In this document: one piece after another, positions 47,614 to 63,828 of the stretch | Layout of the letters: every line of letters starts with the position of its first letter | Numbering within the stretch: position 1 is the stretch's first letter | Assembly (NCBI GenBank): GCA_003215655.1 | Contig: QCKB01000002.1 | Span: 62,001 to 126,000 of the forward strand | Direction: 5' to 3' | Origin: Prochlorococcus sp. AG-409-J16 | GTDB lineage: Bacteria; Cyanobacteriota; Cyanobacteriia; PCC-6307; Cyanobiaceae | Length of the DNA: 64,000 nucleotides | Translations under genes and position numbers: made by a program | Notes under the pieces: model-generated | What the model was told of the DNA's origin: nothing | Databases searched by the model: none | The model's input: only the letters and a program-made list of their open reading frames with translations

Positions 47614-48726
47614 TTATAGGTTTTGAAATCGATTCCAGTAAAATTTATTTAGTAGGTGTTCTTCTTGTTCGCTTAGCGGTTGTTTGCAAATTCTTTTTGT
47701 AAGTAGTTCGGCTGTAATAGCGGCTAAGAGTACACCATTTCTATGGTGACCAGTTGCTAGCCATAATCCTTTAAGAGAAGAAGGGCCAAGAATAGGCAAT
47801 TGATCTGGAGTACATGGTCGAAATCCCCACCATCGTTCCATTGGTGGCCATTGAATTGCATTAGGAAGTAGCGCAGCAATACCGGTTTGTAGTTGTCGCT
47901 GTCCGAATGGGGTGAGCCCTTCACGAAATCCAGCTTCTTTTTCACTAGTTGCACCAACCACTATTAGACCGTCTTCTCTAGGAACCATGTATGTTCCAGG
48001 CCCAAAAATTACTCGTGTAAATGCATTTCGAGGTCCTTGCAGGGATAACATCTGTCCCTTCACAGGAAAGATAGGGAGTTCTTTCAGGATTTGATTGCTC
48101 CAGGCCCCGCTACAAAGAACTCCTTCTTGGCTAAATAGATTGTGGATCTCACCCTCAGCATTTCGGATTTGAACTCCAACAAAAAATTGGTTTTCTCTAA
48201 GAAGTTTTAGAACCTCAACTCCTTCTTGAAATTTCACACCTAAACCAACACAAGCTTTTTCAAGTGCTCTCATTAGGCGTCGACGGTTATCAATTTGACC
48301 ATCTTGCGTAAATAGCAATCCGGTTTTCCAAGGAGTTGCGATTCCAGGTAGCTCGTTTTCTAGTTCTATTCGATTTAATTTTTCTCCAAAATCCTTTGTT
48401 GGATAGGCTTCTAGCTCGGCATTATTTAAAAAAGGAACGATAATTCCGCATTGTCTTAGGCCACAATCAATTCCACTATCAGATTCAATTCTTTTTACCC
48501 AAAGAGGAATTCGATTAAGACTGAGTTGACTTAATAGAAGTAGCTCCTGGTTTAAGCCTTCTGCATGTGGCGCAAGCATTCCCGCGGCAACGAAACCTGC
48601 TGCTTCATTTCTGCGTCTGCTAAGTATTTCAATCCTTTTTCCTTGACGGGCTAGCTCATAAGCAATTGCCAGGCCCATAAGGCCGCCACCAAGGATGAGT
48701 AAAGGTTTTGTGGCTCTTAAAGCCAT
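47614..48726 (-). CDS. thiO: Glycine oxidase ThiO (DAO family)
   Basis: A 370-residue flavoprotein of the D-amino acid oxidase family. The FAD motif is ILGGGLMGLAIAYELARQG near 12-30, followed by AAGFVAAGMLAPHAEG, and the end has WWGFRPCTPDQLPILGPSS and LWLATGHHRNGVLLA, as in ThiO enzymes that oxidise glycine to make the iminoacetate for thiazole synthesis. Convergent with ndk. In many cyanobacteria thiO is fused to thiG; here it stands alone. Confidence 0.88.
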   Translation of the reverse strand: MALRATKPLLILGGGLMGLAIAYELARQGKRIEILSRRRNEAAGFVAAGMLAPHAEGLNQELLLLSQLSLNRIPLWVKRIESDSGIDCGLRQCGIIVPFLNNAELEAYPTKDFGEKLNRIELENELPGIATPWKTGLLFTQDGQIDNRRRLMRALEKACVGLGVKFQEGVEVLKLLRENQFFVGVQIRNAEGEIHNLFSQEGVLCSGAWSNQILKELPIFPVKGQMLSLQGPRNAFTRVIFGPGTYMVPREDGLIVVGATSEKEAGFREGLTPFGQRQLQTGIAALLPNAIQWPPMERWWGFRPCTPDQLPILGPSSLKGLWLATGHHRNGVLLAAITAELLTKRICKQPLSEQEEHLLNKFYWNRFQNL

Positions 48727-52628: not shown

Positions 52629-53042
52629 TTAAAGAGTTGATATGTCAGTAGTTGAGATCGTAATCGCTTGCTCTAAACCTGAGCTCATAGCAATAAGATC
52701 TGAGAATTGCTGGTTTTGATTGAGGCCAAAGAGGCTTTCATGATTGTCATTAGAAGGTATAAACCCTCCAAGATTATTGGTGCTTTGGCTGTTTCTTATG
52801 CTCCAAGAATGATTACTGTCGGATGAATTGATTTCAAAAGAGGAGTTGGCATCTTCTAAGCCAAGGTCATGATGAAATTCTTCAGTGTCTTCAAGGATAT
52901 GGATTTCTTCTGAGCCAATCGGATGACCGGCTATGCGGGCGCTGCCTTGCTCAAAGAGTTCAGCCAAGTCATCCGACAACACTCCTTCTAGCAAGAGGTC
53001 ATCTAGAGCTTGCGAATTTATTTCTCCGGCCAAGGTAAACAT
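52629..53042 (-). CDS. C-terminal fragment of a large EF-hand/RTX-like protein
   Basis: A 137-residue frame starting MFTLAGEINSQALD. The upstream sequence continues in the same frame without a break at the ATG and belongs to the same ancestral gene (see the remnant at 53043-53279). Contents: a beta-like start, an acidic LSDDLAELFEQG stretch and a low-complexity Asn/Ser-rich tail (NHESLFGLNQNQQF). Whether it is translated alone is unclear; it may be a dead remnant. Confidence 0.5.
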   Translation of the reverse strand: MFTLAGEINSQALDDLLLEGVLSDDLAELFEQGSARIAGHPIGSEEIHILEDTEEFHHDLGLEDANSSFEINSSDSNHSWSIRNSQSTNNLGGFIPSNDNHESLFGLNQNQQFSDLIAMSSGLEQAITISTTDISTL

Positions 53043-53294: not shown

Positions 53295-54323
53295 TTAGAT
53301 TCTTGCTGTAAATATCCCTCCATATGCCGCATCAATAAAATATAACTTAGTATTTGGCCCCCTTTCCCCTATGAATCTTGTCGGAACAGATCCTGGAAGT
53401 CGCTTTGCTTTGATTATTTGTCCATCTAGATTTAATTTTAATATGCAATTTCCTGTTCTAGTTGTTAATAAGAAAGTTTCATTATCTACCCATGCTACAT
53501 CGTTTATGTAGCCATTATATTTTCCTAGATGAATGATTTTTAGTAGATATTCTGGCAGGATTTTCTGTGCTCTAAATAAAGAGTCCGGTATCTCTATTTC
53601 TCTTTCTATAGATACTAGCTTATTCAAGTTAATATTTTGTTTAGAGTGTATGTTGCTCAGGCCTAGAATTAAAACCTTGCCAGGTCGATCGGTCCAACCT
53701 CGACATGTTAAAATTGTTTTATTATTTACAATTGGTGAAAACCTATAAGGATAAATTACTTGTATAGTTTGAAGGACATTGCATTCATCTTCTAGTAACT
53801 CTACTAATAAAATTTTTCCATCTCGTATTGCACTAATTAGAAGATAGTCATCACTAAGCCATAGACAATCGTATGAACTAGTTACATTGATATTTATAAT
53901 TCTTATTTGACCTTTAGTATATATAGCAGGGCATCCATTTAAATTCCCAATAAACATTTTTCCCATTGGTGAAAGCTTAAAAGAGCTTGAGAAAAAATTC
54001 TTCTCTTGGATGCATAGATATTTATATTGCCCATAATTGTTTAAAATTAATGGAGGCGCTGAATCTCTGCAGCCAATTAAAATTTCTTCTTTATTTAGTG
54101 GTAAAGCAATATCTGGAATGCTTCTACCTAGGTTCACCTCATCAAGTAATTCGTATGTTTGAAGATCAAATATTTTGACACAGTGTCTTGACTTAATAGG
54201 AACATAAATCCTATTTTTTTCTTCACTAATAGCGGCAGAGTATACATCATTTTGAATAACTGAGGCTCGTAAGATAGGTTGTACTTCTTTTTCAGGAAGC
54301 ATTTTAACTTTATAATTAACCAC
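53295..54323 (-). CDS. Predicted beta-propeller protein, unknown function
   Basis: A 342-residue protein. Repeating blocks of roughly 45-50 residues with short hydrophobic strands (RIYVPIKSRHCVKIFDLQTYE, EILIGCRDSAP, YLLISAIRDGKILLVEL, ETFLLTTRTGNCILKLNLDGQ) suggest a beta-propeller of the NHL/SMP-30/YVTN kind. No signal peptide or membrane anchor. It is the first gene of the AT-rich stretch, its stop 13 bases from the broken calcium-binding protein. No enzymatic motif was recognised. Confidence 0.65.
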   Translation of the reverse strand: MVNYKVKMLPEKEVQPILRASVIQNDVYSAAISEEKNRIYVPIKSRHCVKIFDLQTYELLDEVNLGRSIPDIALPLNKEEILIGCRDSAPPLILNNYGQYKYLCIQEKNFFSSSFKLSPMGKMFIGNLNGCPAIYTKGQIRIININVTSSYDCLWLSDDYLLISAIRDGKILLVELLEDECNVLQTIQVIYPYRFSPIVNNKTILTCRGWTDRPGKVLILGLSNIHSKQNINLNKLVSIEREIEIPDSLFRAQKILPEYLLKIIHLGKYNGYINDVAWVDNETFLLTTRTGNCILKLNLDGQIIKAKRLPGSVPTRFIGERGPNTKLYFIDAAYGGIFTARI

Positions 54324-54522: not shown

Positions 54523-55248
54523 ATGGGTTATTTTCAGAGAGAAATTAGTTCGGAAGAATACTATGATTTAATTCATAATGAATATAATGATATTTCACAA
54601 GAAAAAGCCCAATATTTAGGTTCTATAAATAAGAGGTTAATAGAGATGTTGAATAAATTTAATCCATCAACATGGCTTGATATAGGCTCTGGAGATGGAT
54701 TGCGCCTTCTGGAGATATGCAAGAAGTTACGCAAAAGAAAAGATATAGAAATAGATCTTTTAGAGCCTTCTCTTGAAATGTTTAACCTTGCAAAACAAAG
54801 ACACCCTAATAGTAATATATATAATAATACCTTGGAGGATTTTAGTAAACTATTTTCAAGAAAATATAATTTTATTACAGCATTATGGAATGTAATTGGA
54901 CATGCAAAGTCACAAGCATTGTTTTTGAATTCAATATATGAGCTTATGCATGATGAAGCAGTTTTATTTATTGATGCTAACAATCAATATAATTTAAAGG
55001 CTTATGGAGCTATTAACGTTCTTAAGAACATTTATTCTTCCTTGAATACTGAGACCAATTCACTCTTTAATTTAAAATTCTCAAATTCAAATCAATATAC
55101 AAATGTCTATATACAGAAGCCATATGAGATTGAGAAGAAATTATACCGCTTAGGATTCTCATCAGTAAAAACTATCTTCTTAAATTACAACACTGGAATT
55201 AAAGAGACGCCCTTTACAGGGCAGATATTAGTTTGTGCTATAAAGTAA
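54523..55248 (+). CDS. Class I SAM-dependent methyltransferase
   Basis: A 241-residue methyltransferase. SAM-binding motif I is WLDIGSGDGLRLLEIC near 50-65, then DLLEPSLEMFNLAK (acidic end of strand 2) and FITALWNVIGHAKSQALFLNSIYELM. The C-terminal part forms the substrate side and has no decisive motif. In this setting a sugar or lipid-linked intermediate is a reasonable guess for the substrate, but that is inference from neighbours. Confidence 0.82.
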   Translation: MGYFQREISSEEYYDLIHNEYNDISQEKAQYLGSINKRLIEMLNKFNPSTWLDIGSGDGLRLLEICKKLRKRKDIEIDLLEPSLEMFNLAKQRHPNSNIYNNTLEDFSKLFSRKYNFITALWNVIGHAKSQALFLNSIYELMHDEAVLFIDANNQYNLKAYGAINVLKNIYSSLNTETNSLFNLKFSNSNQYTNVYIQKPYEIEKKLYRLGFSSVKTIFLNYNTGIKETPFTGQILVCAIK

Positions 55249-55306
55249 ACTCCTGGAACAGCATAGATTATTCTATGTATTATCAAAGAAGGGTGAGTTG
55301 TAGAAG

Positions 55307-56656
55307 ATGAATGTAGCTGTTATAGGAAATGGTGCAATAGGACTATGCTGCGCCTATGAGCTTTATAGAAGATATCCTTCTCTTCAGATATCTCTCTTTG
55401 GTTCTAATCAAAATAAATATGGAGCATCACTAGCAGCAGGTGCAATGATTAATGTAGCTTCAGAAATTGATTGCTTTAATTGTAGTCATAAGTTAACAGC
55501 TTGGAAGATGTCAAATAGAAAAGAAGTTCTGAACTTATGGAGAGAACTGGAACAATCGTTTCTTGATAAGAAAGTTATTAATAAGAATATAATTGATGGT
55601 GGTGGTACAGAAGTTGTAATAGATAACGACTCTTCAAATGAGGTTGAACTCAATTCATTCAAGTCAATGAAGAAATGTTTACAACTTTATGGATATAAAA
55701 TCCAGTCATTTTCTGACCAGAAAAATTCAAGCCTTCTGATAAATGATGAAAAGTCGGTTGATGCTGAACTATTTATTCAATCTCTAATAAGGTATCTAGG
55801 AGAGCACATAAAAATATATAATATCGACATTGAAAGCATAAAAAAGAACAGTAAATTTTGGGAGCTGACTGATTATAGTGGTGCAACAAAGCACTTCACT
55901 CATGTCGTTATTGCTTGTGGAGCATGGTCTGAAGGATTAATTAAAAGGTCAAACTTACGGAATAAGCCCAATATTAAAAGTTTTTTTGGTGTTGGTTCTG
56001 CACTACTTACATACTCAGAGCTTCCATACGTGCAGGAACCTAAAATAGATAAAATCATAAGAACACCTAACAGAGGAGGAACATGTGGAATTCATTCTGT
56101 TCAAAGATCTAATGGTTTATATATAGGAGCTTCTAGTCTTATTACTGATGTTGAGATTCAGTCCCCCAGGATGTCAAGCATTGAATCTATTTTAGAAGGT
56201 GCAAGAAAGACTATTGGAATTAACACCTATCAATTATCATTTTCTATTTTAACAGGTTACAGACCAGTAACTTTAGATGCTGTCCCAATTATTGGAGAAC
56301 TTGATGAGAATTTATTTTGTCTTTATGGAACTAAAAGAGATGGCTTTACTTGGGCTCCTTACTATGCTAAGCATTTAGTAAATCAAATATTTGGTGAAAT
56401 AAATTCTAATTGGCAGGAAATGCTTAATTTATCCTCACCCTTTAGGACGCTTATTAGTGCTGGTGACTTCGAGAAATGCGTTGAATCATATGTACTAAAT
56501 AAGAAGTATGAAGCATTTCAACATGGTTTTGAATTGACTAATAATGAAATAGATAATCTCAGAGAAATAGCAATTAAAGCTCATAAAAGAATATCTCAGG
56601 ATTTATCTTTCGGCTTACAACCTGAACTTATTAATATGATAGCATATTCGAACTAA
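55307..56656 (+). CDS. FAD-dependent oxidoreductase (DAO family)
   Basis: A 449-residue flavoprotein. The dinucleotide motif is VAVIGNGAIGLCCAYELYRR near 3-22, then GASLAAGAMINVASEID; the C-terminal FAD contact is in FSILTGYRPVTLDAVPIIG near 313-331. The general layout is that of amino acid/amine oxidases related to ThiO, but the remainder is diverged. It follows the methyltransferase on the same strand (58 bases) and is convergent with the aminotransferase. Confidence 0.82.
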   Translation: MNVAVIGNGAIGLCCAYELYRRYPSLQISLFGSNQNKYGASLAAGAMINVASEIDCFNCSHKLTAWKMSNRKEVLNLWRELEQSFLDKKVINKNIIDGGGTEVVIDNDSSNEVELNSFKSMKKCLQLYGYKIQSFSDQKNSSLLINDEKSVDAELFIQSLIRYLGEHIKIYNIDIESIKKNSKFWELTDYSGATKHFTHVVIACGAWSEGLIKRSNLRNKPNIKSFFGVGSALLTYSELPYVQEPKIDKIIRTPNRGGTCGIHSVQRSNGLYIGASSLITDVEIQSPRMSSIESILEGARKTIGINTYQLSFSILTGYRPVTLDAVPIIGELDENLFCLYGTKRDGFTWAPYYAKHLVNQIFGEINSNWQEMLNLSSPFRTLISAGDFEKCVESYVLNKKYEAFQHGFELTNNEIDNLREIAIKAHKRISQDLSFGLQPELINMIAYSN

Positions 56657-56676
56657 AATATTAATTATATACTTAA

Positions 56677-57795
56677 CTATCGACTTGCTTCTTTTAGAAT
56701 ATTAATCACTCTATTTTGATCAGTCAAAGATAGTTCTGGATATATTGGTAAACACAGTACTTGCTCAGCTATTCTATTGGCTATCGGCAGTTGATCTAAC
56801 CTTGAGCTTTGCATATGCCGATACTTGGGTGTATTACTAATTAAGGGATAAAAGTATTTTCTTAGAAAAATTTTATTTTTCTGAAATAGATCATATAGTT
56901 CATTTCTATTAAGTTTATATTCATTTTCAATAATGATTGGGAAATAGGAATAATTATATTTAATTGAGTCTTTTATTTCTTGAAATCTAATACCCTTTAT
57001 ATTAGATAATTCTTTAATATATCTTTTACTAATTGATTTTCTTTGATCTATTAATTCCGAGATATGATTTAATTGAGTTAATCCTAAAACAGAACTAAAT
57101 TCATTTAGCTTTCCATTTATTCCTTCACCGTTAATACTAGATTCATTCTCAATCCCAAAGTTTTTCAGTAGATCTATTTTGTTCTTTAATTCAAGACTAT
57201 TTACTGCGATAGCTCCACCTTCAAATGTATTAAATATTTTAGTTGCATGGAAGCTTATAACGCTTATATCGCCAAAAGACATTACACCTTTTCCAACAGC
57301 TTCTACACCAAATGCATGAGAAGCATCATGTATAACTTTAAGATTATATCTATTAGCTATTTCCTCGATAGCCATCACGTCACAAGGGTTACCATAACAA
57401 TGAACAGGCATAATTGCACTCGTTCTTTTGGTAATCTTTTCATTTATTAGCTTTGCATCAATATTTAGACTTCCTAACTCTATGTCAACAAAGATAGGGT
57501 TAATATTATTCCATAAGAGTACATTCGATGTTGCAATAAATGAAAATGGTGTTGTAATAACGTCTCCTGTTATTTTTAGGGCTTTAAGAGCAACTAATAA
57601 TGCAGTAGTAGCATTATTAAAAAGGCATATATATGGAACCTTGAGTTGTTTTGCAAGTTTCTTTTCGAGCAGCTGATGATATGGACCTATATTTGTTAGT
57701 ACTCTTGTTTTCCAAATATTTTCTAATGATGGAAGTAGTTCTTCCAATGGAGGCAAATATGGCCTTGTAACATATATCGGTTTATAATTAACCAT
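56677..57795 (-). CDS. DegT/DnrJ/EryC1/StrS sugar aminotransferase
   Basis: A 372-residue PLP enzyme. The N terminus VTRPYLPPLEELLPSLENIW is typical of nucleotide-sugar aminotransferases of the WecE/VioA/Per type; PLP contacts are VIHDASHAFG near 154-163 and the catalytic lysine is K186 in SFHATKIFNTFEGG. Such enzymes put an amino group on a 4-keto or 3-keto nucleotide sugar. It is 15 bases downstream of the 514-residue unknown gene on the same strand. Confidence 0.92.
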   Translation of the reverse strand: MVNYKPIYVTRPYLPPLEELLPSLENIWKTRVLTNIGPYHQLLEKKLAKQLKVPYICLFNNATTALLVALKALKITGDVITTPFSFIATSNVLLWNNINPIFVDIELGSLNIDAKLINEKITKRTSAIMPVHCYGNPCDVMAIEEIANRYNLKVIHDASHAFGVEAVGKGVMSFGDISVISFHATKIFNTFEGGAIAVNSLELKNKIDLLKNFGIENESSINGEGINGKLNEFSSVLGLTQLNHISELIDQRKSISKRYIKELSNIKGIRFQEIKDSIKYNYSYFPIIIENEYKLNRNELYDLFQKNKIFLRKYFYPLISNTPKYRHMQSSRLDQLPIANRIAEQVLCLPIYPELSLTDQNRVINILKEASR

Positions 57796-57810: not shown

Positions 57811-59355
57811 CTATTTATTTATTGAAGTCATAACCAGACTCATTGGACTTGGTTTAAATATATAATCCATGATGGCTAATGAGATATTTGCGCATGCACT
57901 CTTGAATTCATCAGATTCTAGATTGTTTGTCCAAATACTATATTCATCCATGTACTTTCTATTAATTGGAGTCAATTCATCACCCCAAGCGTAACATGGC
58001 CTGCTCATACGACTAGGGGGATGCTTTTTATACCAGAGTGTGATAATTGGAAATTCATAGCAATAACTATGTGTTATTGCACTACTTCCTCCAAAGACAA
58101 ATGATACTTTCGCAGATTTGTAGAATTTATGCTTCTCATGTACATTTAATCCCATTATATTTATTAGCCTATTCTGTTTATCGTCTATTCTAGATAATAT
58201 ATTTTCGTACATTAGAGTTTCATTCTTTAGAAATTTTTCAAATAAAGGACTTGAGGATATTAACAGATCTTTTGTGACCCCTTCAATGATATATTCTATT
58301 TTATACTTAAATGTGTTGTTTATTATAGTAATAATTCTAGCTGTTATTTCTATTTGAAGATCCATTGGAATTTGCTTATTGTTTCCTTTAATAGATAAGA
58401 TTATTTTCTTAGGAGATTTATTTTCGTGCTCACTTTTACTTTTCGCATAATTTTCATCTAAATAATCTCTATACGTATTGTAATACTCTGAATATCTATG
58501 CATTGTATCTATTGGCATAAATAGGCTCTGCATTTCAAGTTTACTATTTTTATTGTTTCTATTTTTACTAATATCGACGACAGTTTGTTTATTTATTCCA
58601 GAATTAGCCAACAAATAGTTTAAGAAACCATCGCTATCAAGAAAATCCCCTTTTGTATTTAAAATACTAGAGTAGATACCTTTCTCAAAAAGTTTCTTGT
58701 ATACTCCATGCTTTTCATACTTTATTAATCCTCCGATCGTATTCCACATGCAATGTCCTAGATTCTTACTTGGATGAAGTGGTACAAATAAGATTTGATT
58801 TATATCATTCACTTTATATCTATGCTGTTTTGCCTTTTCTTGAAAGAATTTATTTTTGTCTTTTGGGGACAGTTTTAATAGACTCAGTATGACTACTTCA
58901 CTTTTTAAATTAAGTTTAGAATTGATTGATAATCCGATGGAAAGTTCAAAAATACCAGCATATCCCTTGACAAATCTTATGTACCTTCTATTTCCACAAT
59001 CATCTTTTAGATTATATATTGCAATATCTATATAGCGAAGATCATTAACTGTAAATATATTTTCGGTTATTTTGATTTGGCTCAAAATCGTATTGAGATC
59101 TGTTTTTGTTAACTCTTTAAGTAATAATTCATAAAAATAAAAATGATGACTTCTAATTAAATGCACAGCATTATATATGTTATCTGTCGACGTTTCATAT
59201 GTTAGAGATTTTTCTTTAGAATATGTTTCTATTAAATGTCTCTCCCGTTCGATGAATTCTACTTCGCATGAAGTATAAGACTTATCATATAAACTCATTA
59301 CTAAATTGTAATTATCAATATTGAGATAACCGAGTAATTTTTCGAATAAATTCAT
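57811..59355 (-). CDS. Unknown 514-residue protein, perhaps a glycosyltransferase
   Basis: The N-terminal part (to about 180) has no motif I recognise. The middle contains FVPLHPSKNLGHCMWNTIGG near 190-209. The last third has the feel of a GT-B donor-binding half: SFVFGGSSAITHSYCYEFPIITLWYKKHPP, with a Gly/Ser-rich loop after a strand and a following helix. This suggests a glycosyltransferase of a diverged family, but no catalytic residue is certain. Strongly AT-rich coding sequence with many AAA/ATA codons. It precedes the aminotransferase by 15 bases and likely shares its transcript. Confidence 0.55.
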   Translation of the reverse strand: MNLFEKLLGYLNIDNYNLVMSLYDKSYTSCEVEFIERERHLIETYSKEKSLTYETSTDNIYNAVHLIRSHHFYFYELLLKELTKTDLNTILSQIKITENIFTVNDLRYIDIAIYNLKDDCGNRRYIRFVKGYAGIFELSIGLSINSKLNLKSEVVILSLLKLSPKDKNKFFQEKAKQHRYKVNDINQILFVPLHPSKNLGHCMWNTIGGLIKYEKHGVYKKLFEKGIYSSILNTKGDFLDSDGFLNYLLANSGINKQTVVDISKNRNNKNSKLEMQSLFMPIDTMHRYSEYYNTYRDYLDENYAKSKSEHENKSPKKIILSIKGNNKQIPMDLQIEITARIITIINNTFKYKIEYIIEGVTKDLLISSSPLFEKFLKNETLMYENILSRIDDKQNRLINIMGLNVHEKHKFYKSAKVSFVFGGSSAITHSYCYEFPIITLWYKKHPPSRMSRPCYAWGDELTPINRKYMDEYSIWTNNLESDEFKSACANISLAIMDYIFKPSPMSLVMTSINK

Positions 59356-61651: not shown

Positions 61652-62293
61652 ATGCTTGATCCTAGTTTTATACCTAAGCAAATACAATATGATGTAACCT
61701 TGTGGGGACCTTTTTTATGGCAAAGTCATTTACTGTCAACACTTATAGATGAGCTTTATTTGCGTGCTGAAAAGGTTAGAAATATTCCAGAACATAATGC
61801 TGAGAGGGACTTAGCAGCATTAATGCATGATGAATGGTCCTACACAGAAGGTGATAATCAATGGTTTGCTCAAGTGATTAAACCTTGGATCCATGCTTAT
61901 CTTGACACATATGCAAAAAGTATTGGAAAGAAAGGAAGCGTAGAATTAGATTATAATAAATGGAATCTAGATAATCTTTGGGTTAATTTTCAGAAACAAT
62001 ATGATTTTAATCCTCTCCATAATCATTCTGGCTCTTTAAGTTTTGTTATTTATTTAAATGTACCAGAGGAATTAAATGCAGAAGCTTCACACTGGAAAGG
62101 AACAGGACCAGATCCAGGAAGTATTATGTTTCAATATGGAGAAGAACTCCCATTAATCTCTAATAAAAGAATCTTTAAGCCTAAGAAAGGAGATATTTTC
62201 ATCTTCCCATCATCGTTACATCATATGGTAATTCCTTTTAGAACACCTAATATTGAACGAGTATCTGTAAGTGGCAATATTACTTTAGAATAG
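61652..62293 (+). CDS. Putative 2OG-Fe(II) oxygenase
   Basis: A 213-residue protein. A likely iron site is PLHNH with His 123 and His 125, and a distal histidine pair in SSLHHMVIPF at 190-191; ERVSVSGN near 202-209 carries the Arg for 2-oxoglutarate. The order H-x-H...H...R and the GDIFIFPS strand match the family of uncharacterised 2OG-Fe(II) oxygenases often found in phage and cyanobacterial genomes. Hydroxylation of a peptide or glycan is possible. It lies 117 bases before the HisH-like gene on the same strand. Confidence 0.75.
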   Translation: MLDPSFIPKQIQYDVTLWGPFLWQSHLLSTLIDELYLRAEKVRNIPEHNAERDLAALMHDEWSYTEGDNQWFAQVIKPWIHAYLDTYAKSIGKKGSVELDYNKWNLDNLWVNFQKQYDFNPLHNHSGSLSFVIYLNVPEELNAEASHWKGTGPDPGSIMFQYGEELPLISNKRIFKPKKGDIFIFPSSLHHMVIPFRTPNIERVSVSGNITLE

Positions 62294-62410: not shown

Positions 62411-63046
62411 ATGTTTTCTATTGGAATTTTAGACGTTGGAATAGGAAATATACCTGCAATAGAAGGCTCTTATAGAAGATTAAATATTCAAACCACAAGA
62501 ATATCAACCTATAATCAATTGAAATTAGTTAATCATCTGATAATACCTGGTGTAGGTAACATGTCTGAATATATGTCACGGCTCAGAGGTTTGAGCCTAG
62601 ATAATGAAATTAAATCCTTTTCACAATATGGCTACATTTTAGGTATATGCTTGGGCTTCCAAGCCCTTTTCGAGTTTTCAGAGGAAGGCGATACTGAATG
62701 CCTTGGAATACTAAATGGCCATGTTAAAAGAATTTTTGATATATCTCATATTTCTACTAACATAGGATTCTTAACCATCTCTCCAAAAAAAATATTAGAG
62801 GAGAATAGTATCAAGAACCAGCTTTCATTACGCTCTAATAATAATACTGAGTATTACTTCACTCATTCTTTCTATGTAGAAGACACGAGATTTACCACCC
62901 ATTTAATTAATAATTCACAACTATCTAATGTATCTGCGGCATGTAGCAATTTTTCAAATATTTTTGGTACTCAATTTCACCCAGAACTTAGCCATTCCGA
63001 TGGTTTGCACATACTTTCTTCCTTTTCATTATTGGGAAATCAGTGA
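62411..63046 (+). CDS. HisH-like glutamine amidotransferase (Wbu-type glycan amidation)
   Basis: A 211-residue class I glutaminase. The catalytic Cys is C80 in GICLGFQ, the His-Glu pair is in FHPE at 189-192, and PGVGNM near 46-51 is the oxyanion strand. It would release ammonia from glutamine and pass it to its partner barrel. The next gene overlaps by four bases and is a HisF-like protein; together with the amidotransferase that follows this is the glycan-amidation set (WbuY-like), not histidine synthesis, which in cyanobacteria uses separate unlinked genes. Confidence 0.85.
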   Translation: MFSIGILDVGIGNIPAIEGSYRRLNIQTTRISTYNQLKLVNHLIIPGVGNMSEYMSRLRGLSLDNEIKSFSQYGYILGICLGFQALFEFSEEGDTECLGILNGHVKRIFDISHISTNIGFLTISPKKILEENSIKNQLSLRSNNNTEYYFTHSFYVEDTRFTTHLINNSQLSNVSAACSNFSNIFGTQFHPELSHSDGLHILSSFSLLGNQ

Positions 63047-63828
63047 TTAATCTCCAGAAGTCTTATTTTAGCCATGCTCGTCCACGTCTAATAGCAACTT
63101 TGCTATTACGTAATTCTCTAGCATTTGTTTCTAATCAATTCAACTCTTATGAATATGTAGGTGATCCGATAGTTATATTAAATATTCTCTCTGGCTTCAT
63201 GGTTGATGAAGTTATTGTAATTGATCTGGATGCATCCTCTTCTGGTGCTCTGAATAAACGTCTTTTGCAATCACTAAGATCTATAGCAGATTATCCCCTT
63301 TCATATGCTGGAGGTTTACGTGATCAAAATAATATAGACTCTATATTTCAGCTGGGTTATGATAAAATTTTCCTTTCATTATTTAACCCCAGTTTAAATA
63401 ATCTTGCATCTTATGCTTCAGCTAAATCTGGAATTCAATCAATAGCCTTATCAATTGATTATACATTAACAATTAATAGCGAGCGTTTTCTTTTTAATCC
63501 TTATGACAGATTGACTAAAGGATATCTGAATGACTTTCCAAGTATTGCTCGACTTGATTATTTTTCCGATATTCTTCTTACCAATACAACACTCACTGGC
63601 ACTAAGACGAGTATCGACCATCATGTCTTATCTGATAGAACAATTAAGGCAATCGACAATCCGATAATTCTTTCAGGTGGTCTTAAAAATGAAGGCATGG
63701 CAACTATTCACTCTTGTGCATTAATAAATTCTAATTTTTCTGGTATAGCAGCTGGTTCTAGCATCTTTCTACAAACAGGTCCTGGCTCTGCTTTGGTTTC
63801 ACTGCTATGTCACTCGAATAATAATTAG
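63043..63828 (+). CDS. HisF-like barrel protein (Wbu-type glycan amidation)
   Basis: A 261-residue TIM-barrel protein resembling the cyclase subunit HisF. The strand-1 motif of true HisF (PCLDVKDGRVVKG) is replaced by ATLLLRNSLAF, so the first catalytic Asp is lost, while the second (ALSIDYT, Asp near 139) is kept. Similar replacement is typical of the WbuZ-type HisF2 paralogues that channel ammonia to an N-acetyl-sugar amidotransferase. ILSGG near 220 and AAGSS near 244 are phosphate-loop-like. Coupled to the HisH-like gene. Confidence 0.82.
   Translation: MINLQKSYFSHARPRLIATLLLRNSLAFVSNQFNSYEYVGDPIVILNILSGFMVDEVIVIDLDASSSGALNKRLLQSLRSIADYPLSYAGGLRDQNNIDSIFQLGYDKIFLSLFNPSLNNLASYASAKSGIQSIALSIDYTLTINSERFLFNPYDRLTKGYLNDFPSIARLDYFSDILLTNTTLTGTKTSIDHHVLSDRTIKAIDNPIILSGGLKNEGMATIHSCALINSNFSGIAAGSSIFLQTGPGSALVSLLCHSNNN

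What the first reader, a model, noticed from the sequence alone, without database searches (positions are those of the whole stretch)
54523..57795. Methyltransferase, DAO-type oxidoreductase and sugar aminotransferase cluster
These three are typical of pathways making rare amino sugars, yet a DAO-family oxidase is an unusual partner. It could oxidise an amine or amino-sugar intermediate instead of an amino acid. Together with the amidation module this suggests one multi-step sugar not yet described in this group.
Basis: inference. Interest (0 to 1): 0.5.

Follow-up and report, generated by a model that had tools for sequence, protein, structure and literature searches.

The report
Glycine-derived amidine maker beside sugar aminotransferase
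A Prochlorococcus-type ocean cyanobacterium carries, in a genomic island with sugar-modifying genes, an enzyme related to those that antibiotic producers use to put a glycine-derived amidine cap on amino sugars, which suggests an undescribed way of decorating its surface sugars.

Summary
The three genes are real and intact at the stated coordinates, in a GC-poor island of a Prochlorococcus-type genome. The DAO-type protein does not look like an amino-acid-catabolism oxidase. Its best solved relative is the N-formimidoyl synthase Orf1 (E 7e-24, against 1e-5 for the best glycine oxidase). It keeps Orf1's reactive cysteine (C281 -> C260), the glycine-site residues (H284, Y294, R342, R368) and a C-terminal extension. 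In an 18-protein tree it groups with Orf1-type proteins away from ThiO/DadA (100/100). Orf1 oxidises glycine and transfers it to an amine as a formimidoyl or iminoacetyl group. The neighbouring gene is a DesI/PseC-like sugar aminotransferase and the genome has rmlABCD, so the likely acceptor is an amino sugar. The same trio, rearranged, recurs in a second genome (methyltransferase cut by the contig end). Five of 400 family genomes have the oxidase. Caveats: acceptor and activity are untested, and Orf1's essential E426 appears as glutamine in all five homologues. New variant of a known kind.

The parts
55307..56656 (+). DAO-family flavoprotein of the N-formimidoyl/iminoacetyl synthase (Orf1) type, 449 aa
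   Evidence: Pfam DAO E 2.7e-28; the six best phmmer PDB hits are all Orf1 chains, best E 7e-24; tree 100/100 with Orf1-type proteins; Foldseek rank 1 Orf1 on a weak model, pLDDT 61
56060..56095 (+). codons of RTPNRGGTCGIH (residues 252-263): stretch with C260 (= Orf1 C281) and H263 (= Orf1 H284)
   Evidence: identical in 5 of 5 picocyanobacterial homologues; Cys in 10 of 10 family rows and 0 of 8 ThiO/DadA/other rows
56381..56653 (+). C-terminal extension absent from ThiO (about residues 359-449), predicted helical; counterpart of Orf1's four-helix domain
   Evidence: Pfam DAO match ends at residue 358; helices 388-405, 412-429, 439-448 in a weak model; extra C-terminal domain described for Orf1 (PMC10156733)
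56677..57795 (-). DegT/DnrJ/EryC1 sugar aminotransferase; best NCBIfam model DesI, below its cut-off
   Evidence: homologue next to the oxidase in G749, 46%, against 35% or less for the other matches; motif SFHATK kept
54523..55248 (+). class I SAM methyltransferase; weak best PDB match to a dTDP-3-amino-sugar N,N-dimethyltransferase
   Evidence: truncated homologue next to the oxidase in G749
53295..54323 (-). predicted beta-propeller protein, candidate partner of the oxidase
   Evidence: 2 of 299 order genomes have it, both oxidase genomes and near the oxidase; not found near the oxidase in G104, G643 or G749; all-beta model, pLDDT 79, Foldseek hits propellers
57811..59355 (-). 514-aa protein just upstream of the aminotransferase on the same strand, possibly a glycosyltransferase
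   Evidence: 15 bases from the aminotransferase (coordinates); only a sub-threshold Glyco_transf_61 match, E 0.07
62411..63828 (+). HisH2/HisF2 genes of the amidation module (WbuX-like partner lies just past the window, L006:11833-13017); same island, not shown to belong to the trio's pathway
   Evidence: co-occurrence not supported

Best explanation
The trio modifies a nucleotide-linked (probably dTDP-) amino sugar. The aminotransferase puts an amine on a 4-keto-6-deoxy sugar. The DAO protein, a relative of N-formimidoyl fortimicin A synthase / Orf1, oxidises free glycine with FAD and O2, passes the product to cysteine C260, and delivers it to the sugar amine, leaving an N-formimidoyl (amidine) or N-iminoacetyl (glycine imine) group. 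The methyltransferase adds a methyl group to the sugar or its amine. The sugar ends up in a surface glycan or glycoprotein encoded by a variable island. Shown here: family, residues, clustering and recurrence. Inferred: glycine as donor, sugar amine as acceptor, order of steps, surface location. Orf1's F316A variant gave mainly iminoacetyl product and this position aligns with S, N or T in four picocyanobacterial homologues, which hints at the kasugamycin-like product; that alignment column is uncertain.
For: phmmer: Orf1 E 7e-24 against 1.1e-5 for the best glycine oxidase. Orf1 A54, G55, A56, M57, C281, H284, Y294, R342, R368 map to A44, G45, A46, M47, C260, H263, Y272, R319, R344. The genome's own ThiO (47614-48726) lacks C281, H284 and Y294. 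Tree: 10 family rows on one side of a branch against 8 others, 100/100. Profile comparison: E 5e-37 with Orf1-type, 1e-17 with ThiO, 3e-4 with DadA. Similar aminotransferase next to the oxidase in G000 and G749; another DegT aminotransferase plus rmlA, rmlB, rmlC about 1.3-4 kb away in G233. rmlA, B, C, D above cut-off in the window's genome. Orf1 chemistry: PMC10156733 sections 6, 7, 8 (part 1) and 9. Precedent, proposed there, for a transaminase plus this kind of oxidase on the kasugamine precursor: KasC/KasN, PMC8869731 passages.
Against: No activity, substrate or glycan data. Overall identity to Orf1 is only about 27%. Orf1 E426, whose E426Q variant made no end product, aligns with Q405 in 5 of 5 picocyanobacterial homologues; the profile alignment stops before that column, so it is neither confirmed nor excluded. 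Orf1's acceptor-site residues F279, E312, E313, F316 are not kept in the window protein. In G104 and G643 I saw no DegT aminotransferase among the ORFs read beside the oxidase; the nearest matches lie on the same contigs about 14 kb (G104) and 16 kb (G643) away. DegT proteins occur in 10 of 10 genomes searched. The predicted model is weak at the active site. No dehydratase or epimerase was recognised in the island itself.
Confidence: 0.6

Rival explanations
1. Same glycine-transfer chemistry, but the acceptor is not a sugar: a small molecule, lipid amine or peptide; the aminotransferase is a neighbour only.
For: Family members on plasmids lie beside genes without an annotated sugar aminotransferase in the stretches read (A. 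tumefaciens L011, S. finlayi L012, P. avellanae L013). Orf1's acceptor-site residues are not conserved. G104 and G643 show no adjacent aminotransferase.
Against: Similar aminotransferase adjacent in two genomes; G233, G104 and G643 loci also hold nucleotide-sugar genes.
Confidence: 0.17
2. The DAO protein oxidises an amine or amino-sugar intermediate directly.
For: DAO-family enzymes include N-alkyl amine oxidases (recalled); the CmiS2 structure ranks 27th by Foldseek. The acceptor pocket differs from Orf1.
Against: Glycine-site residues H284, Y294, R342, R368 and the Orf1-type cysteine are all kept; R342 and R368 alone are also in ThiO and not specific.
Confidence: 0.1
3. An amino-acid catabolic oxidase (glycine, sarcosine or D-amino acid) caught in the island by chance.
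For: Same Pfam family; best NCBIfam model is ThiO, 71.6 bits against a cut-off of 250.8. A first tree with more distant outgroups did not resolve its place.
Against: Below the cut-offs of all five NCBIfam models listed; the genome has a separate ThiO in the same window; tree and Cys stretch; recurs next to a similar aminotransferase.
Confidence: 0.06
4. The trio and the HisH/HisF/WbuX module build one multi-step sugar.
For: Both lie in one island of about 12 kb; G104 and G643 have WbuX on other contigs.
Against: WbuX over cut-off in 2 of 5 oxidase genomes against 20 of 141: no clear association; none found in G233 or G749.
Confidence: 0.07

Closest known systems
Orf1 of the BD-12 (streptothricin) cluster and N-formimidoyl fortimicin A synthase (Fsm14)
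   Same: To Orf1: DAO/GR2 fold, glycine-site residues, reactive cysteine in the RTxNRxxxCGxH stretch, C-terminal extension
   Different: About 27% identity to Orf1; E426 appears as Q405; F279 is G258; other acceptor-site residues differ; lies in a cyanobacterial island instead of an antibiotic cluster. Fsm14's own sequence was not compared
KasN/KasC of kasugamycin biosynthesis
   Same: Glycine-oxidase-type enzyme paired with a transaminase on an amino-sugar precursor (proposed in PMC8869731; passages read)
   Different: KasC is likened there to an omega-transaminase, not DegT; KasN and KasC sequences were not compared here
DesI/PseC-type sugar aminotransferases
   Same: DegT family, best NCBIfam model DesI, best PDB hit 2po3
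   Different: 269 bits against a DesI cut-off of 650: not a DesI equivalog
dTDP-3-amino-3,6-dideoxyglucose N,N-dimethyltransferase (TylM1; name recalled)
   Same: Best PDB match of the methyltransferase, residues 12-133
   Different: Only E 2e-5; O- or N-methylation cannot be told apart
ThiO glycine oxidase
   Same: Superfamily and glycine-carboxylate arginines
   Different: Lacks the Cys stretch, H284, Y294 and the C-terminal extension; a separate ThiO gene is in the same window

Membership tests
N-formimidoyl/iminoacetyl synthase (Orf1/Fsm14) family | DAO-type FAD fold with highest similarity to Orf1 among solved structures | tested here: met
N-formimidoyl/iminoacetyl synthase (Orf1/Fsm14) family | Reactive cysteine C281 | tested here: met
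   C260; Cys in 10 of 10 family rows, 0 of 8 others
N-formimidoyl/iminoacetyl synthase (Orf1/Fsm14) family | Glycine-site residues H284, Y294, R342, R368 | tested here: met
   H263, Y272, R319, R344
N-formimidoyl/iminoacetyl synthase (Orf1/Fsm14) family | E426 that holds the adduct's carboxylate | tested here: inconclusive
   MAFFT places Q405 there in 5 of 5; E in wild-type Orf1 (paper; the Q in the typed 7xyl piece is the E426Q variant), L011, L012, L014; gap in L013; hhalign does not reach the column. If the alignment holds, the feature is not met in Orf1's form
N-formimidoyl/iminoacetyl synthase (Orf1/Fsm14) family | C-terminal domain of about 100 residues | tested here: met
   about 90 residues beyond the DAO match; helical, but in a weak model only, so the fold of the domain is not established
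N-formimidoyl/iminoacetyl synthase (Orf1/Fsm14) family | Grouping with Orf1 against ThiO/DadA | tested here: met
   100/100 with 18 rows; a first tree of 15 rows with more distant outgroups was unresolved
N-formimidoyl/iminoacetyl synthase (Orf1/Fsm14) family | Glycine-dependent transfer to an amine | not testable with these tools
   needs enzyme assay
DegT/DnrJ/EryC1 sugar aminotransferases | Family profile and the PLP lysine (motif recalled) | tested here: met
   PF01041 E 1.4e-94; K186 invariant in three aligned proteins
DesI equivalog | Score above the TIGR04427 cut-off | tested here: not met
   269 bits against 650
ThiO glycine oxidase equivalog | Score above the TIGR02352 cut-off | tested here: not met
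   71.6 bits against 250.8

The most novel reading that the evidence does not exclude
Some Prochlorococcus-type cells cap an amino sugar of their surface glycan with a glycine-derived formamidine or iminoacetyl group, using a Cys-N-O-S type flavoenzyme that the papers seen here describe only from antibiotic pathways, with Gln-His in place of Orf1's Glu; it would be a second, independent route to sugar amidines beside the HisH/HisF/WbuX acetamidino route, and here both sit in one island.
Probability: 0.45. Interest if true: 0.75.

Novelty: new variant of a known kind. Interest (0 to 1): 0.6.

Why it matters
If right, a rare and mechanistically odd flavoenzyme chemistry moves from antibiotics into the envelope of a very abundant phototroph. 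Amidine groups on sugars change charge and can be recognised by phages: a Campylobacter phage protein binds acetamidino-modified pseudaminic acid (PMC4690887, abstract start in the search listing only). It gives a concrete, testable product for an otherwise anonymous island, and a natural variant (Q for E426, if the alignment holds) to probe the proposed N-O-S mechanism.

Tried and rejected
Plain ThiO/DadA-type oxidase: rejected. Direct oxidation of the amino sugar: disfavoured. Link to the amidation module: an enrichment suggested (protein query: 2 of 4 oxidase genomes against 5 of 151 family genomes) was not borne out by the more sensitive profile; the protein query had missed a WbuX over the cut-off in the AG-409-J19 genome. 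Phage origin: no relative of the oxidase found in viral contigs (pattern-based scans) or phages. First genome-contig scan with the single protein found nothing; with the alignment it found three loci. First tree with MnmC, SolA and DadA as outgroups was unresolved; for I dropped MnmC and SolA, added two ThiO, one DadA and two other oxidases, and supplied an L-INS-i alignment, so outgroup and alignment were changed after seeing a bad tree. Structure prediction of the oxidase was weak (pLDDT 61), so no distances were taken from it. A methyltransferase-type gene lies next to the oxidase in G233 (by eye), G104 and S. finlayi too, but blastp found no significant similarity to the window's. Literature: no paper with 'formimidoyl' and 'Prochlorococcus'; 'N-formimidoyl' with 'cyanobacteri' gave one natural-product review, listing only; formimidoyl with O-antigen, and N-formimidoyl with polysaccharide and sugar, gave nothing relevant by listing beyond the kasugamycin paper; N-formimidoyl with aminotransferase and gene cluster gave only that paper. 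These searches cover open-licence PMC papers only. Similar proteins outside actinomycetes are in print: Photorhabdus plu3567 is listed as similar to N-formimidoyl fortimicin A synthase (PMC2422844, passages).
Full report
What is there. The stated interval holds three intact ORFs: a SAM methyltransferase, a DAO-type flavoprotein and a DegT/DnrJ/EryC1 aminotransferase. They belong to a GC-poor island (genes at 0.29-0.34 GC; the argJ-like gene before it, named by eye, 0.43) of a 1.84-Mb genome in 18 contigs. Relatives of the oxidase found in named records are Prochlorococcus single-cell genomes AG-402-I20, AG-409-J19 and AG-363-P06, so I treat the host as Prochlorococcus-type (inference). The island also holds a predicted beta-propeller protein, a 514-aa protein, a second methyltransferase-like protein, a 2OG-Fe(II) oxygenase, HisH2, HisF2 and, just past the window, a WbuX-like amidotransferase.

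What the oxidase is. The six best solved relatives are all chains of Orf1, named N-formimidoyl fortimicin A synthase (best E 7e-24); the best glycine oxidase is at 1.1e-5. Numbering the printed Orf1 chain so that C281 fits (offset 21) reproduces the paper's residues at 22 of 23 positions checked; the other, 426, reads Q because 7xyl is the E426Q variant. Against this, the window protein keeps A54-G55-A56-M57, C281, H284, Y294, R342 and R368 as A44-G45-A46-M47, C260, H263, Y272, R319 and R344. The cysteine sits in a stretch, RTxNRxxxCGxH, that is gapped in the four ThiO rows. In an alignment of 18 proteins it is Cys in all 10 family rows and in none of 8 ThiO, DadA and other oxidases, and the tree separates these two sets with 100/100 support. 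An earlier 15-row tree with MnmC and SolA did not resolve this. Profile comparison gives E 5e-37 with Orf1-type proteins and 1e-17 with ThiO. The predicted model is weak (pLDDT 61) but ranks Orf1 first among solved structures. The genome has its own ThiO-like gene at 47614-48726 (38% identical to an annotated Azospirillum ThiO), so thiamine synthesis should not need this protein.

What Orf1 does (PMC10156733; abstract, introduction, sections 6, 7, 8 part 1 and 9 read). Orf1 oxidises glycine with FAD. The product reaches C281, forms an N-O-S linked adduct, and the amine of a second substrate attacks it. This leaves an N-formimidoyl group (+27 Da) or, with longer acceptors or in F316A, an N-iminoacetyl group (+71 Da with ST-F). 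C281A, C281S and E426Q gave no end product; C281A and E426Q still oxidised glycine. R342A lost glycine oxidation.

Where the window enzyme differs. Orf1 F279, E312, E313 and F316 are not kept in the window protein, as expected for another acceptor; E312 does align with Glu in G643 and G104. E426 aligns with Q405 in all five picocyanobacterial homologues, followed by an invariant H406 and preceded by an invariant E402. The profile alignment ends before this column, so the difference is likely but not settled. It is the main reason to call this a variant and to keep confidence moderate.

Distribution. The oxidase was found in 3 of 299 sampled genomes of the order, in 1 of 386 of the phylum (the window's own) and in 5 of 400 of the family; each count includes the window's own genome. 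The five are G000, G233 (= AG-402-I20), G643 (= AG-409-J19, the genome also reached as G627), G104 (= AG-363-P06) and G749. These identities follow from equal contig lengths and positions. No relative was found in viral contigs or in phage records. In plasmids, 15 records matched; the four whose protein I aligned with the family (L011-L014) all keep the cysteine, and a fifth fetched (H11) is annotated ThiO and served as outgroup. Other phyla's chromosomes could not be searched with the tools left.

Neighbours. G749 has the aminotransferase (46%) and, cut by the contig end, the methyltransferase (53% over 55 residues) next to its oxidase, in another order. The methyltransferase had matches in 2 of 299 order genomes: the window's own and G218 (29%), where it lies in another context. 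G749 is not among the rows of that search that I saw. After the G749 aminotransferase lies a protein matching the NGT glucosyltransferase model, below its cut-off. In G233 a different DegT aminotransferase (25%), rmlA, rmlB and rmlC lie within about 4 kb, and a homologue of the window's propeller protein (43%) about 5 kb away. That propeller was found in 2 of 299 order genomes, both oxidase genomes, but not near the oxidase in G104, G643 or G749. In G104 and G643 the oxidase is followed by a 443-444-aa protein and a dehydratase-type SDR; their nearest DegT matches lie about 14 and 16 kb away on the same contigs. So sugar genes lie near the oxidase in all five loci, but close relatives of this aminotransferase and methyltransferase in two. 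DegT homologues were found in 10 of 10 genomes searched, so a DegT gene somewhere in the genome is no evidence.

Pathway proposal. The window's genome has rmlA, B, C and D above their cut-offs, so dTDP-4-keto-6-deoxyglucose should be available. The aminotransferase scores best with DesI and PseC models, below cut-offs, and would make a 4-amino sugar. The oxidase would add the glycine-derived group. The methyltransferase, whose weak best PDB match is a dTDP-amino-sugar N,N-dimethyltransferase (E 2e-5), would methylate. Kasugamycin is a close parallel: KasC (transaminase) and KasN (glycine oxidase type) are proposed to act on the kasugamine precursor (PMC8869731, passages). All steps beyond family assignment are inference.

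The amidation module. HisH2 scores above the HisH cut-off; HisF2 and the WbuX-like protein score below their family cut-offs. A first test suggested co-occurrence with the oxidase, but with the TIGR03573 profile WbuX passes the cut-off in 2 of 5 oxidase genomes and in 20 of 141 family genomes; at E <= 0.001 it is 3 of 5 against 43 of 141. The sample of 141 includes G000 and G643. The numbers are small and show no clear link.

Verdict.

Noticed in passing
window 53295-54323 (-); L008:3924-4919 (-): Predicted beta-propeller protein with no Pfam or NCBIfam match at E 0.001, found in 2 of 299 order genomes, both at an oxidase locus; a candidate partner of unknown role.
   Followed up: partly
L042:2890-4761 (+): Protein similar to UDP-glucose:protein N-glucosyltransferase (NF049992, 190 bits, cut-off 1000) right after the aminotransferase in G749; might point to protein glycosylation.
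   Followed up: no
L009:5230-6561 and L010:11440-12774: A 443-444-aa protein directly downstream of the oxidase in two Prochlorococcus genomes, similar by eye; the L009 copy has no Pfam match at E 0.001.
   Followed up: no
L011:7980-9470, L012:9965-11422, L013:5995-7443, L014:5644-7215: Cys-bearing relatives of Orf1 on Agrobacterium, Streptomyces and Pseudomonas syringae-group plasmids, annotated only as FAD oxidoreductases; S. finlayi's lies near NRPS and RidA genes.
   Followed up: partly
L006:11833-13017 (just past the window): The island's WbuX-like amidotransferase scores low (171 bits, cut-off 203) compared with the 20 of 141 family genomes whose WbuX passes the cut-off.
   Followed up: partly
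window 61652-62293 (+): 2OG-Fe(II) oxygenase matching phrog_81, a family placed by PHROGs among phage auxiliary genes.
   Followed up: no
window 52629-53042 (-): 137-aa ORF with no PHROGs match at the island edge; GC 0.42 unlike the island.
   Followed up: no
L023:1489-2217 (-): 29%-identical homologue of the window methyltransferase in G218, beside an SDR and a cytidylyltransferase-like protein (by eye), with no match to the oxidase in the 3.7 kb held.
   Followed up: partly
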